A DNA stretch of 64,000 nt from Phocaeicola oris (GTDB lineage: Bacteria; Bacteroidota; Bacteroidia; Bacteroidales; Bacteroidaceae): assembly GCF_021295095.1 (NCBI RefSeq), contig NZ_JAJLQX010000009.1:1-64000 (forward strand). Reading direction: 5' to 3'. Each line of letters opens with the position of its first letter. Position 1 is the stretch's first letter. Shown in pieces: positions 1,207 through 64,000 of the stretch. A program made the translations under genes and the position numbers. A model generated the notes under the pieces. It saw nothing but the letters and a program-made list of their open reading frames with translations, did not search any database and was not told where the DNA came from.

Positions 1207-1246
<40 letters not shown>

Positions 1247-1278: not shown

Positions 1279-1750
1279 AAGTTTTTGCAGGAAAAACTAT
1301 CGTTTCCCTGTGTTGTGCAAATACCTTTATAATATAGGTGGAAATGCGGTGGATGACTATATTTCCCTAACGTGTTCAAAATCCCTTGATTTAGATTTCG
1401 GAGGCAAAGCTAAGGATTAAGTTTAATTTATGCAAGGAAAAGAACAGAATTTTATCGAATTCACGTAAATTTATCGTTTTCAGTGAAAAACACACCTTAG
1501 GTTCTTCAGGTGAACCTTGAACCTTGCGATATTGATTTAAATTATCATCAAAAGACCGGGAAAAGTGATGTGTATGAATAGCCCCGCCCCACACGGGTAG
1601 TCAGGCAAATACTTCCGATGAATACAAGAACCCAACCGTATTTTCGAACCTTCATTCTTATTCTTTTCATTCTTATCTTTTTGTTAGCTTTTCCAAGACT
1701 AAAGAAATATTTATTCATCCTTTCCACTAAATAAGTACAAAAAAGAAATT
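1279..1750. other. Gene-free stretch between fimbrillin leader and nitrilase operon
   Basis: It holds the weaker part of the duplicated leader (to about 1475), a small inverted repeat AGGTTC...GAACCT (1499-1517), one degenerate unit of the ATGAGTT repeat family (1568-1589, preceded by AAAGTGAT as in the intact arrays), and T-rich sequence. I see no convincing gene. Confidence 0.5.
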
Positions 1751-9276: not shown

Positions 9277-9386
9277 ATGCGTATGAGTTGATCGATTCAT
9301 GTGTATGAGTTTGGCAAATAATATGTATGAGTCAGGTGATTTATATAGATAAAACATCTGACTCATACATATAAAACATGCACATA
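9277..9386 (+). repeat. 22-bp-period array, ATGAGTT family, five units
   Basis: Five consecutive 22-bp units start at 9277, 9299, 9321, 9343 and 9365. The first three contain RTATGAGTY; the last two are degenerate and partly complementary to unit 3. The array is preceded by AGAGTGAT, a flank also seen at 48 and 63.9 kb. It lies between the convergent aryl-acid and cyd operons. Confidence 0.85.
9321..9372. terminator. Long hairpin formed by array units
   Basis: ATATGTATGAGTCAG (9321-9335) pairs perfectly with CTGACTCATACATAT (9358-9372), and GTG/CAT adds three more pairs counting one G-T. It sits between convergent operons and could terminate from both sides, although neither flank has a good T-run. 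Confidence 0.45.
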
Positions 9387-25496: not shown

Positions 25497-25518
25497 ATAA
25501 GCATGAGTTAAGTAATTC
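25497..25518 (+). repeat. Single ATGAGTT-family unit
   Basis: One 22-bp unit reads ATAAGCATGAGTT followed by nine bases ending ATTC. It resembles the units at 33 and 39 kb and stands about 36 bp before a different 22-bp array. Confidence 0.6.
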
Positions 25519-25554
25519 ATCTTCATTATTAAAAAAATAACGCGTAACATCTTA

Positions 25555-25642
25555 TCGTCTCACTATTGTGATACATTTGTTTCACTTCTGTGAGGCGGTT
25601 GTTTCACTTCTGTGAGACGATTGTTTCACTTCTGTGAAACGA
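25555..25642. repeat. 22-bp-period array, TTTCAC/GTGAAA family, four units
   Basis: Four 22-bp units start at 25555 (degenerate), 25577, 25599 and 25621. The consensus is TTGTTTCACTTCTGTGA followed by RRCGR. Each unit has a small inverted repeat TCAC-TTCT-GTGA, and the array ends are also mutually inverted (TTATCGTCTCAC against GTGAAACGATAA). Confidence 0.9.
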
Positions 25643-25901
25643 TAAAATTATCAAAGGAAAAAACCTTAAACTTTCTTATTACGGCTCCAGTTTGAATATA
25701 CAATAAAACTAAATTGTATCAAAAAAATAATCCCACGATTCGCATCACAGGATTATCACAACACAAACACAAAATAAAACACGACAAAACTACTCTGCTT
25801 CCTGTCGAGGTTTGGGAGCCTCACTTACTACCTCTCTCCATTCACATGGAAAGAGAAGTTTCAGGTCGCATGTTTCTTATATTATTATATTAATTTCTAT
25901 C

Positions 25902-32819: not shown

Positions 32820-32972
32820 ATACATAAATCCTAATAAATGAAACTATATAAGAATTATTTTAATATTAATTTCACCGTAATTTCAAGACAGAAATTTAAT
32901 GTATAGCCTAAGAGTCGACAGCATATTCTTTGTCTCCATATAACGTCCGTTCAGCGAATATAAATCATGCGA

Positions 32973-33014
32973 GCCGTGTATCTGTCTGAAAAGATGCAAT
33001 GATACACGGCTTTT
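32973..33014 (+). terminator. Hairpin of dispersed element copy A
   Basis: GCCGTGTATC (32973-32982) pairs with GATACACGGC (33001-33010), followed on the plus strand by TTTT. Nothing obvious needs terminating in that direction here. Confidence 0.5.
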
Positions 33015-33030
33015 CTGAACCCAACCTTAT

Positions 33031-33118
33031 CGGCTACTGTTCCGATACGCATAAATCATTCAACTCATGCTGATCAATCTCTCAACTCATACGCATGAGT
33101 TAAACAGTTCATGCGGTT
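33031..33118 (-). repeat. 22-bp-period array, ATGAGTT family, four units (inverted)
   Basis: On the minus strand four exact 22-bp steps begin at 33118, 33096, 33074 and 33052. The cores are CGCATGAACTG, GCGTATGAGTTG, AGCATGAGTTG and GCGTATCGG. Within the array GTTTAACTCATGCGTATGAG is itself partly palindromic. Confidence 0.9.
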
Positions 33119-33380
33119 CGCCTTTTCACAACCTCTTAATGACCAATTAAATTCACATGATAGGTTCGCAGATTCATAGGTTCATCAAGGCTAATTTTTT
33201 AAACAACCTATTTTGCTTATTTAATATAAGAAATTGATTTATAGAATAACAAGAAGAAACTCGTATGTATATTTCACTTAAAAGATGTATTCTTCAAATA
33301 TTATTCGTAATATTGCACTTGTCTGTTGATAGTTTTAATCGGATATTTATATTTTTTCAATTCACATTAATATAGCATGT

Positions 33381-38985: not shown

Positions 38986-39269
38986 AACAATATTATGTTA
39001 TACAGCATAATATTATAAAAGAAAATTTTCGTAAGTATTAAAAAATATAAAATTATACAACTTCTATAACAGACATGAAATAAATAAGATACCTATAAAT
39101 AGGATGGTTTCGTGGGTAATACCGTTTCACCTTTGTTTAATAGAAACTTATTCTATGCAAGTTCAAGGAATATACACATGGGTGTTTCTTCTATTCTGTT
39201 ATATTTATTATTGTTACAACTATTTACTTTAATATATAGAAGTTTCCATTTTGAACAATAAACCATAGT
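38986..39269. other. AT-rich intergenic DNA
   Basis: No gene or strong structure seen; the dispersed element copy B starts at 39270. Confidence 0.5.
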
Positions 39270-39334
39270 GAACCGATGAGCCCGCGAACCTATTATGTGA
39301 ATTTGATTTGTCATCAAGAGATTGTACAAAGGTG

Positions 39335-39466
39335 AACCGTATGAACTGTTCAACTCATGCGGATGAGTTGTTCGATTGATGCGGATGAGTTGATCGATTC
39401 ATCCGCATGAGTTGAGCAAATGATACGCATCACTTTGCCGGTTTATGCGTATCAAAACAGTAGCTG
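39335..39466 (+). repeat. 22-bp-period array, ATGAGTT family, six units
   Basis: Six exact 22-bp steps begin at 39335, 39357, 39379, 39401, 39423 and 39445. The best units read ATGCGGATGAGTTG followed by eight bases such as ATCGATTC. Units 1, 5 and 6 are degenerate and correspond one-to-one with the outer units of copy A. Confidence 0.93.
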
Positions 39467-39480
39467 ATATGGTTGGTTTC

Positions 39481-39525
39481 AAAAAAAGACGTGTATCACT
39501 ACATCTTTTCAGGCGGATACACGGC
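39481..39525 (-). terminator. Terminator of the DUF5686-rarA-dehydrogenase operon
   Basis: GACGTGTATC (39488-39497) pairs with GATACACGGC (39516-39525; one mismatch), followed on the minus strand by seven T. It is part of element copy B and lies 33 bp past the dehydrogenase stop. Confidence 0.8.
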
Positions 39526-39558
39526 TTGTATTATTTAATTTCATTGAACGCACGTTCT

Positions 39559-44930: not shown

Positions 44931-45395
44931 CTTTGCAACGTCTGCAAAGTGTCCGATAAACTCAAAAGTAGGCTTTGCAACGTCTGCAAAGCCTACTTTT
45001 CACTCGTTTGAGTGTTATGTCATTTGACAAAGCTTATTTTTGACTCGTTTGGAAACTTTGTCAACGTGACAAACCGCACTTTCCATCCGTTTGAACGGTT
45101 TGCACGGCTGACAAGAGCTATTTTTTCACGGGGCGGACTGCTGTCGGAGTTCCCGACAACGCTTTTTTTCCGTAAAAGTGCTTGCGGGAAGCCCGACAGC
45201 AGTTATTTCTTCGTAAAAGCACCGTCGGGAAGTTCCGACAGTGCATTTTTTCTCGTAAAAGAGGTTTCGGGAATCCCGATAGTGCTTTTTTCTTCGTAAG
45301 AACACCATCGGAAGTCCCGACAACGCATTTTCTCTCATAAAAGAGGTTTCGGGAATCCCGATAACGCATTTTCTCTCATAAAAGCACTGTCGAGC
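44931..45395. repeat. 41-bp-period palindromic array, about 11 units
   Basis: Each unit is a palindrome of about 18-20 bp plus a T-rich arm. The first five cores are of the TTTGTCAACGTGACAAA type (44931, 44973, then steps of 41), with arms such as ACTTTTCACTCGTTTG. From 45139 the cores become GTCGGGAATCCCGAC types (45139, 45179, 45220, 45262, 45303, 45344, part at 45385), with arms TTTTTTCYYCGTAAAAG. The period is 40-42 bp throughout. It ends 18 bp before the stop of the 886-aa fimbrillin gene. Confidence 0.9.
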
Positions 45396-48297: not shown

Positions 48298-48333
<36 letters not shown>

Positions 48334-48647: not shown

Positions 48648-48713
48648 ATACGAATGAGTTGAACGATTCATGCGGATGAGTTTACCAACTTATCAGTATC
48701 TATTTAAAATTTT
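48648..48713 (+). repeat. 22-bp-period array, ATGAGTT family, three units
   Basis: Units start at 48648, 48670 and 48692 (last degenerate), preceded by AAAGTG as at 63.97 kb. The array lies 33 bp upstream of the glnS -7 box. Confidence 0.85.
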
Positions 48714-58769: not shown

Positions 58770-59149
58770 TTACTAAGACAATTAATAAAATAATAAGACT
58801 TATTATTTGCTTTACAAAGAAAACAAAGTTTACCACCATTCGTGAGAGACACTTTCCACCACTCGTGAGAGATGTTTGCCACCTATGGTGGTAAAGGTTT
58901 GTCACCACTTGTGACAAGCTTAGTTTATCAATTAAAATTCATACTTGACGGATATCTCTATCGTAAATGTTTCGAATAAATGTGCCGGATGTCAGATATC
59001 ATTTCATGAATCTTCTCTCTTTAACACGAGACTTCCTGTTCAAGTGTTCTAAAGTAATAGAATGAAAAAATGTTTTAGAAAATGATATTATCTTCTTTCA
59101 ATTACACAAAAATTAATTCATTTTAATCTTCCCAAAAAGAATAAAACAT
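58770..59149. other. Intergenic region between thuA-like gene and rhaB
   Basis: It contains a 22-24-bp-period array (58829-58919) and AT-rich DNA leading to the rhaB -7 box. I see no AraC-type operator that I can name. Confidence 0.5.
58829..58919. repeat. 22-24-bp-period array, CCACC/GTG family, four units
   Basis: Units start at 58829 (24 bp), 58853 (22), 58875 (23) and 58898 (22). Each begins TTT and contains a dyad: CCACCANTCGTG, CCACCTATGGTGG or TCACCACTTGTGA. Unit 3 is a full 13-bp palindrome. Confidence 0.85.
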
Positions 59150-63867: not shown

Positions 63868-63975
63868 ATACCATAATATGACGTATCGATAATGGTGCTT
63901 GATACCACAGAATAAACCAAAATGGGAGCTCATAATATACAGTTGTCAATCCAATACGTATGAACATAGAAAGTG

Positions 63976-64000
63976 ATACGGATGAGTTGTCAGGTTCATG
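63976..64000 (+). repeat. Start of another ATGAGTT-family 22-bp array
   Basis: One full unit (63976-63997) and the first three bases (ATG) of a second run to the window edge. It is preceded by AAAGTG as at 48.65 kb. Confidence 0.75.

What the first reader, a model, noticed from the sequence alone, without database searches (positions are those of the whole stretch)
39335..39466. A dispersed family of intergenic arrays with an exact 22-bp period and an ATGAGTT core
Seen: multi-unit arrays at 9277-9386, 33031-33118 (inverted), 39335-39466 and 48648-48713, an array start at 63976-64000, and single units at 25497-25518 and 1568-1589. Consensus is ATRCGKATGAGTTG plus eight looser bases ending ATTC. 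Steps are exactly 22 bp even where the sequence has drifted, and three loci share the upstream flank AGTGAT. 22 bp is not a multiple of three, so this is not coding; there are no spacers, so it is not CRISPR. Inference: selection or the growth mechanism keeps the length, near two helical turns. That would suit cooperative binding of a protein on one DNA face, a processed RNA, or a slippage/recombination process with fixed register.
Basis: partly seen in the sequence, partly recalled or inferred. Interest (0 to 1): 0.75.

Follow-up and report, generated by a model that had tools for sequence, protein, structure and literature searches.

The report
Mobile 22-bp palindrome arrays between genes
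Short DNA units of exactly 22 letters are stacked head to tail between this bacterium's genes; a good part of them sit inside small jumping elements that gain or lose one whole unit at a time, and related species have arrays with the same spacing but mostly different letters.

Summary
The arrays are real: GNATGAGTTG occurs 489 times in the 2.98-Mb genome, against 17 for the reversed pattern, and 62 of 63 neighbour steps keep the 22-bp register. The unit is an imperfect palindrome. A second 22-bp family (TTTCAC-N4-GTGA) is also abundant. About a third of the arrays carry recognisable ends of one MITE family with IS982-type inverted repeats. Four copies, 97.5-99.3% identical, hold 3, 4, 4 and 5 units (404, 425, 426, 448 bp), so arrays change by whole units. 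The plan (leader, minisatellite, tail) is that of the Porphyromonas gingivalis MITE BrickBuilt; unit and ends differ.

The new part is comparative. In stretches from other species of the genus, family and, weakly, order, 22 bp is the commonest period of noncoding tandem arrays (19 of 32 of period 17-30), with other unit sequences; other orders show no excess (1 of 7). At the orthologous locus one sister has a different 22-bp array. I favour phased palindromic protein-binding sites carried by MITEs. What fixes 22 bp is unresolved; RNA hairpins or a copying mechanism remain open.

The parts
39250..39556 (+). Composite dispersed element holding the main array; a 71% identical inverted copy lies at 32942-33203
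   Evidence: Self-match; right terminal repeat ACGTGCGTTCAATGAA at 39540-39555 (-), 3 mismatches to the MITE repeat; no left repeat within 4 mismatches
39337..39450 (+). Family A array, five units in one 22-bp register (first unit inverted, last degenerate)
33047..33116 (-). Family A array, three units, mixed orientation
   Evidence: inside the inverted copy of the 39250-39556 element; terminal-repeat-like ACGTCCGTTCAGCGAA at 32943, 4 mismatches
9277..9348 (+). Family A array, three units, the last two degenerate, running into a longer inverted repeat (TATGAGTCAG...CTGACTCATA)
48648..48697 (+). Family A array, two units after AAAGTGATACG
63970..64000 (+). Start of a family A array of about six units running to about 64098 of the contig; right terminal repeat (2 mismatches) at about 64204-64219, outside the window
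25497..25524 (+). Single degenerate family A unit
   Evidence: 14 of 18 consensus positions
25577..25643 (+). Family B array, 22-bp period, unit TTGTTTCACTTCTGTGAGACGA
1451..1466 (-). MITE-type terminal repeat ACGTGAATTCGATAAA (3 mismatches), near the weak unit claimed at 1568

Best explanation
The arrays are minisatellites of 22-bp imperfect palindromes. In this genome many of them form the core of a non-autonomous transposable element (MITE) of IS982 type, built as terminal repeat, leader, 22-bp array, tail, terminal repeat. Shown: the shared terminal repeats, a leader end that resembles the right end of an IS982-type insertion sequence, 7-bp target duplications in young copies, and unit number changing by whole 22-bp units between near-identical copies. 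Inferred: an IS982-type transposase supplied in trans spreads the element, and slippage or unequal exchange changes unit number. Also inferred, and less sure (about 0.45 on its own): the unit length is held because each unit is a palindromic binding site for a dimeric DNA-binding protein, and 22 bp puts successive sites on one face of the helix. The confidence given is for the carrier and its whole-unit growth.
For: Terminal repeats within 3 mismatches flank at least one side of 16 of 45 arrays examined and both sides of 8, against 0 for the reversed motif and for six shuffled motifs (at 5 mismatches the controls also ring, so 3 was used). Eight of the 45 came through a query that itself runs into such an element; without them it is 12 of 37 and 5 of 37. 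Full elements L013, L019, L177, L178 are 97.5-99.3% identical, 426, 425, 448 and 404 bp, with 4, 4, 5 and 3 units. Seven-bp target duplications, read by eye, are exact in 3 of 10 two-ended elements, 6 of 7 bp in 3, unclear in 4 (one of the ten, L010, is 154 bp and holds no array). A protein fragment beside the same terminal repeat matches the NCBIfam IS982 transposase model (28.9 bits, under the full-length cut-off of 130); close copies (82-88%) lie at two more places, and a named relative is annotated IS982. A 1,025-bp relative on a Prevotella nigrescens replicon has the repeat at both ends (2 and 0 mismatches) and a right end resembling the MITE leader; no gene is annotated over it. Ten of 26 exact copies of the repeat lie within 400 bp of a known contig end, as expected of a multicopy insertion sequence. 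Binding-site part: at one locus orthologous in three species, comparing G206 with G217, half-sites are 31 of 32 identical, the inner N4 8 of 16, linkers 33 of 42.
Against: Most arrays (29 of 45) show no terminal repeat within 3 mismatches, so either old copies have decayed or arrays also spread another way. In sister G201 five loci of another 22-bp family carry no such repeat within 4 mismatches in the DNA read; two of them, both at contig ends, share 250 bp at 96%, so they may be one repeat. The half-site conservation is partly ascertained: without the two end dyads by which these loci were found it is 15 of 16 vs 5 of 8. No binding protein was identified. The strand with ATGAGTT folds more stably as RNA than its complement, which the protein model does not predict. 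No intact copy of the transposase belonging to these ends was seen in the assembly (a 309-aa frame at C13 is only 40% identical).
Confidence: 0.72

Rival explanations
1. The arrays act as RNA: transcripts of the ATGAGTT strand form rows of hairpins, and two turns of A-form duplex (about 11 bp per turn, recalled) set the 22-nt period.
For: The ATGAGTT strand folds more stably than its complement in 21 of 24 oriented arrays after dinucleotide-shuffle correction (mean z -5.1 vs -3.0, Wilcoxon p 3.7e-5; four arrays of balanced orientation dropped). The window's main array matches its own reverse complement at 74%. [quoted passage not shown]
Against: Paired positions show no compensatory excess: in family A, Watson-Crick at the most variable stem pair is 37 vs 70 expected; in the genus B elements outer N4 pairs are independent (p 0.68). 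Those expectations mix both reading directions, so they show directional units rather than avoidance. No Rfam match to any array in the four sources searched. Orientation to neighbouring genes is mixed.
Confidence: 0.2
2. Nothing selects 22 bp for function; a copying mechanism (hairpin-primed slippage or an enzyme that duplicates a fixed length) makes 22-bp palindromic arrays again and again.
For: Families that look unrelated, in one genome and in different species, have 22 bp. Recent copies differ by whole units.
Against: Slippage usually gives many periods (recalled); here 21 and 23 are rarer, though they do occur in sisters. Four-unit B elements stand at an orthologous place in three species with conserved half-sites.
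Confidence: 0.25
3. Classical REP elements moved by a REP-associated tyrosine transposase.
For: Dispersed, intergenic, palindromic repeats with species-specific sequence.
Against: No Y1_Tnp (PF01797) match in this 95% complete genome, while 8 of the 21 genomes searched have one. IS982-type (DDE-type) MITE ends instead.
Confidence: 0.02

Closest known systems
BrickBuilt MITE of Porphyromonas gingivalis (Klein et al. 2015, PMC4596501)
   Same: Intergenic MITE with leader, spacer-free tandem array and tail, terminal inverted repeats, stem-loop potential, unit number varying between strains at one locus
   Different: Unit is 23 nt with another sequence; ends GAGACCTTTGCA; 19 copies in strain ATCC 33277, versus several hundred units in at least two families here
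MITE239, MITE700 and ISPg3 of P. gingivalis (PMC4596501 Table 2)
   Same: The first 12 bases of the MITE239 terminal repeat, ACGTGAGTTCGA, equal the first 12 of the repeat found here
   Different: That paper lists ISPg3 under IS5 and saw no minisatellite in the MITE239 and MITE700 types; the transposase fragment beside the repeat here matches IS982
IS982 family (PMC7335449, passages; IS1187 of Bacteroides fragilis has 7-bp direct repeats)
   Same: Ends begin with AC, a relative of about 1 kb, 7-bp target duplication
   Different: The MITE lacks the transposase and carries 22-bp arrays; the word MITE does not occur in that paper's text
22-, 23- and 41-nt tandem repeats reported for P. gingivalis W83 (cited in PMC4596501)
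   Same: The same period classes occur here and in sisters
   Different: PMC4596501 says the locations of these repeats were not identified in that report; I saw no sequence of the 22-nt ones, so homology was not tested

Membership tests
BrickBuilt MITE | 23-nt unit AGAYCATARTATCCTCTCRTRTG | tested here: not met
   Period is 22 and the unit TNCGNATGAGTTGNNCNNTTNA is unrelated by eye
BrickBuilt MITE | Terminal repeats GAGACCTTTGCA | tested here: not met
   Ends are ACGTGAGTTCGACGAA
BrickBuilt MITE | Leader, spacer-free tandem array, tail, intergenic | tested here: met
   27 of 28 clusters with two or more cores lie between ORFs or at the edge of a fetched stretch, one lies inside an ORF call
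MITE derived from an IS982-type insertion sequence | Terminal inverted repeats shared with an insertion sequence in the same genome | tested here: met
   the same repeat borders transposase fragments
MITE derived from an IS982-type insertion sequence | Target-site duplication | tested here: met
   7 bp, exact in 3 of 10 two-ended elements, near in 3, unclear in 4
MITE derived from an IS982-type insertion sequence | IS982 transposase able to move it | tested here: inconclusive
   A fragment matches NF033520 below its full-length cut-off; no intact copy with these ends seen, perhaps lost at contig breaks
REP/BIME with RAYT | REP-associated tyrosine transposase in the genome | tested here: not met
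   PF01797: no match in own genome
CRISPR | Repeats separated by unique spacers | tested here: not met
   Units abut

The most novel reading that the evidence does not exclude
In this bacterial order the conserved trait is the geometry, not the sequence: palindromic arrays with a 22-bp period and two dyads 11 bp apart recur in many species with different units. That would imply a conserved protein or copying machine that reads or builds spacing while its target sequence turns over between species.
Probability: 0.3. Interest if true: 0.85.

Novelty: new variant of a known kind. Interest (0 to 1): 0.6.

Why it matters
If the period is conserved while the sequence is not, the usual search for conserved motifs would miss a whole class of bacterial intergenic repeats. 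It also gives a direct test: the same locus in two sister species holds two different arrays of the same period, so one can ask whether one protein or one growth process handles both. The MITE copies that differ by single units could serve as length markers for strain typing and as a bench system for how bacterial minisatellites grow.

Tried and rejected
Porphyromonas BrickBuilt identity: rejected by unit and ends. RAYT/REP: rejected, no Y1 transposase found in the genome. Known RNA family: no Rfam match at gathering score in the window, L013, L018 and L019 except a tRNA in L019. Spread of unit A in phages: the two-unit pattern has no exact match in IMG/VR, and one B-type MITE (from L019) has no match in plasmid or phage records. 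Unit A elsewhere: one exact hit among 84,980 species genomes, a Dehalococcoidia contig, taken as chance (the tool says records of the window's own or a very near genome may be left out). Gene-end preference: B arrays are in 5 of 25 convergent, 5 of 71 codirectional and 2 of 41 divergent gaps (A: 8, 14, 6), too few to conclude. A test for avoidance of perfect palindromes was set aside because mixing reading directions lowers the apparent pairing. Orthologous gaps in 11 of the 60 relatives were read for empty sites, but flanks are too diverged to align: nine hold gene-like sequence of similar length (468-530 bp; not tested as genes), G244 a 152-bp gap, G201 its own 22-bp array. A pattern for a G240 family found only its one locus. 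Paper searches on novelty: (86 was on IS982); in their listings I saw no report of a conserved 22-bp period with differing units, but most subscription journals are missing from the library. Papers: PMC4596501 abstract, passages, section 7 part 1 of 2 and section 8; PMC5771137, PMC3733652, PMC9426551, PMC10969869 and PMC7335449 passages only; the rest listings only.

Full report
OBSERVATION. The window is the first 64 kb of a 111-kb contig (C50) of a 2.98-Mb, 50-contig genome. The core GNATGAGTTG occurs 257 + 232 times in it, against 7 + 10 for the reversed pattern; the two-unit pattern occurs 183 times, against 0. In 443,066 bases read here (the window plus 20 stretches chosen because they hold hits, so the density is not a random sample), 60 clusters of core sites give 63 neighbour steps. 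Sixty-two fit one 22-bp register, counting inverted neighbours; one does not.

UNIT. Family A is TNCGNATGAGTTGNNCNNTTNA. It is an imperfect palindrome: with a 22-bp period one mirror axis implies a second 11 bp away, and the array alternates 11-bp half-sites. Dyad symmetry exceeds unit-shuffled controls (p<=0.05) in 21 of 23 noncoding A arrays and in 10 of 13 other noncoding 22-bp arrays of this genome. Family B, GTTTCAC-N4-GTGA, has 213 core hits against 1 for the reversed pattern, and all 33 steps in the 12 sampled gaps that hold it are exactly 22. A further unit, CACGTGCGTGGTACATGTGCGT, occurs once in the sample (L010). Units of A and B can lie side by side in one element and one 22-bp register (L168, L019).

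THE MOBILE ELEMENT. Aligning the neighbourhoods of nine A arrays showed leader and tail modules shared by about half of them, ending in terminal inverted repeats ACGTGAGTTCGACGAA. Within 3 mismatches the repeat lies on at least one side of 16 of 45 arrays and on both sides of 8; reversed and six shuffled motifs give 0. At 4 mismatches shuffled motifs ring on one side of up to 2 arrays and at 5 of up to 8, so I used 3. Eight of the 45 were brought in by a query that runs into such an element; without them the counts are 12 of 37 and 5 of 37. Seven of the 16 are A arrays and nine are B arrays, so both families ride in one MITE family. The window array at 39337 has a right repeat at 39540 (3 mismatches), and the one at 63976 has one just outside, at about 64204. 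Ten elements have both ends (one of them, 154 bp, without array): 7-bp flanking duplications, read by eye in AT-rich flanks, are exact in 3, 6 of 7 in 3, unclear in 4. Four of the ten, L013, L019, L177 and L178, are 97.5-99.3% identical and hold 4, 4, 5 and 3 B units, with lengths 426, 425, 448 and 404 bp. This is direct evidence that unit number changes by whole 22-bp units in young copies.

SOURCE OF MOBILITY. Beside the same terminal repeat lies a fragment of a transposase that matches the IS982 model over 62 residues (E 7.8e-7, 28.9 bits, below the full-length cut-off of 130); two more places match it at 82-88% and a third, at a contig end, at 79% over 34 residues. Many weaker hits of that search are to the array part of the query. 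Ten of 26 exact repeats lie within 400 bp of a known contig end, so full copies of a multicopy insertion sequence were probably lost in assembly; this is inference. On a Prevotella nigrescens replicon (NZ_CP082843.1) a 1,025-bp relative carries the repeat at both ends, and its right end continues TTCAGAACAAAGCAAGCTGTGTATC, close to the MITE leader TTCAAAATAATGTAAGCCGCGTATC; no gene is annotated over it. Mobilisation by this transposase in trans was not tested.

OTHER SPECIES. Unit A appears confined to this species: the two-unit pattern is absent from 200 other genomes of the family, 59 others of the order sample and 59 of the phylum sample, and the core in 60 other genomes of the genus is at 10-74 copies. 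Family B is less confined: 41 of 61 genomes of the genus have its core, mostly a few copies, up to 17 in G248 and 16 in G206, against 213 here. The period is wider still. In noncoding DNA from stretches of other species, among lags 15-60, lag 22 is equal first with 23 in the genus (ratio 1.93 to the median, robust z 5.7), first in other genera of the family (2.77, z 10.0), second in other families of the order (1.56, z 3.3) and unremarkable in other orders of the phylum (1.05, z 0.3) (40, 20, 20 and 24 stretches, mostly 20 kb, some much shorter contigs). The stretches were taken at arbitrary places, often contig starts, except one G201 stretch known to hold an array, which counts under period 44 and not among the 19. 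Among noncoding arrays of period 17-30, 22 bp makes up 8 of 16, 8 of 12, 3 of 4 and 1 of 7 in those four groups; 19 of 32 for the first three, from 15 stretches (binomial p 2e-14 against a uniform choice of 14 periods, a crude null). Unit sequences differ by eye: CAATTTTAATTCTCTGCGCAGA in G201, ACGTGTGAGCTCACACATACAT in G080, ACGAACGTTCGACCTAGGTCGC in another genus; a few are shared between species, such as a 23-bp unit in G216 and G168. Dyad symmetry is significant in 5 of 11 noncoding arrays of the genus, 2 of 8 in the family and 0 of 3 in the order, so palindromy is supported for part of the genus and not shown beyond. The G201 unit has 12 hits at five loci, every step 22 within arrays, and none in the other 60 genomes. 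One of those loci is the gap orthologous to the window's main array. In sister G245 a 22-bp palindromic array lies about 500 bp from an IS982-type left end, and in G227 weak 22-bp palindromes, not called by the repeat finder, follow a truncated transposase. The G201 loci show no such end within 4 mismatches; two of them, at contig ends, share 250 bp at 96%.

MECHANISM. For binding sites: family B occurs as four units in exact register in several sisters. At one locus orthologous in three species, G206 against G217, half-sites are 31 of 32 identical, the inner N4 8 of 16, linkers 33 of 42, flanks 232 of 268. The two end dyads were used to find these loci; the two inner ones alone give 15 of 16 and 5 of 8. 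For RNA: the ATGAGTT strand folds better than its complement (21 of 24), but no compensatory pairing is seen. For pure copying mechanics: whole-unit changes and several different 22-bp families. I put most weight on MITE-borne phased binding sites, and hold the reason for 22 bp open.

VERDICT. The carrier is a new variant of a known kind, a BrickBuilt-like MITE with a minisatellite core. The recurrence of the period with different units across species was not seen in the listings of paper searches, and is the part worth following.

Noticed in passing
window 45144-45384: A tandem array of 41/82-bp period; 41-bp arrays also occur in L020 (3912-4136), in sister G201 (L042, L044) and in another family of the order (L113). 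P. gingivalis MITE464/PgRS also has a 41-nt unit (PMC4596501). Period 41 may be a second shared class.
   Followed up: partly
window 58828-58883: A 23-bp array, GTTTACCACCACTCGTGAGAGAC, with inverted CCACC/GGTGG parts nearby; 23-bp arrays also occur in sisters (L045, L058, L094, L095).
   Followed up: no
L020 end and L023 start (contigs C4 and C6): Two contigs end beside A arrays in the same sequence on opposite strands (around CTAGACACTTTTTTGCTACATTAGCT), perhaps ends of another multicopy insertion sequence placed next to arrays.
   Followed up: no
L021 15705-16740: An IS4-type transposase frame (NF033592 match below its cut-off) seems to interrupt a copy of the IS982-type element.
   Followed up: no
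window 1208-1244 and 48299-48331: Two long TG dinucleotide runs (18.5 and 16.5 copies) that could vary by slippage.
   Followed up: no
G206, G217 and G218 (L151, L157, L156): The B element stands at the same place beside the same flanking sequence in three species, inside a longer imperfect inverted repeat.
   Followed up: partly
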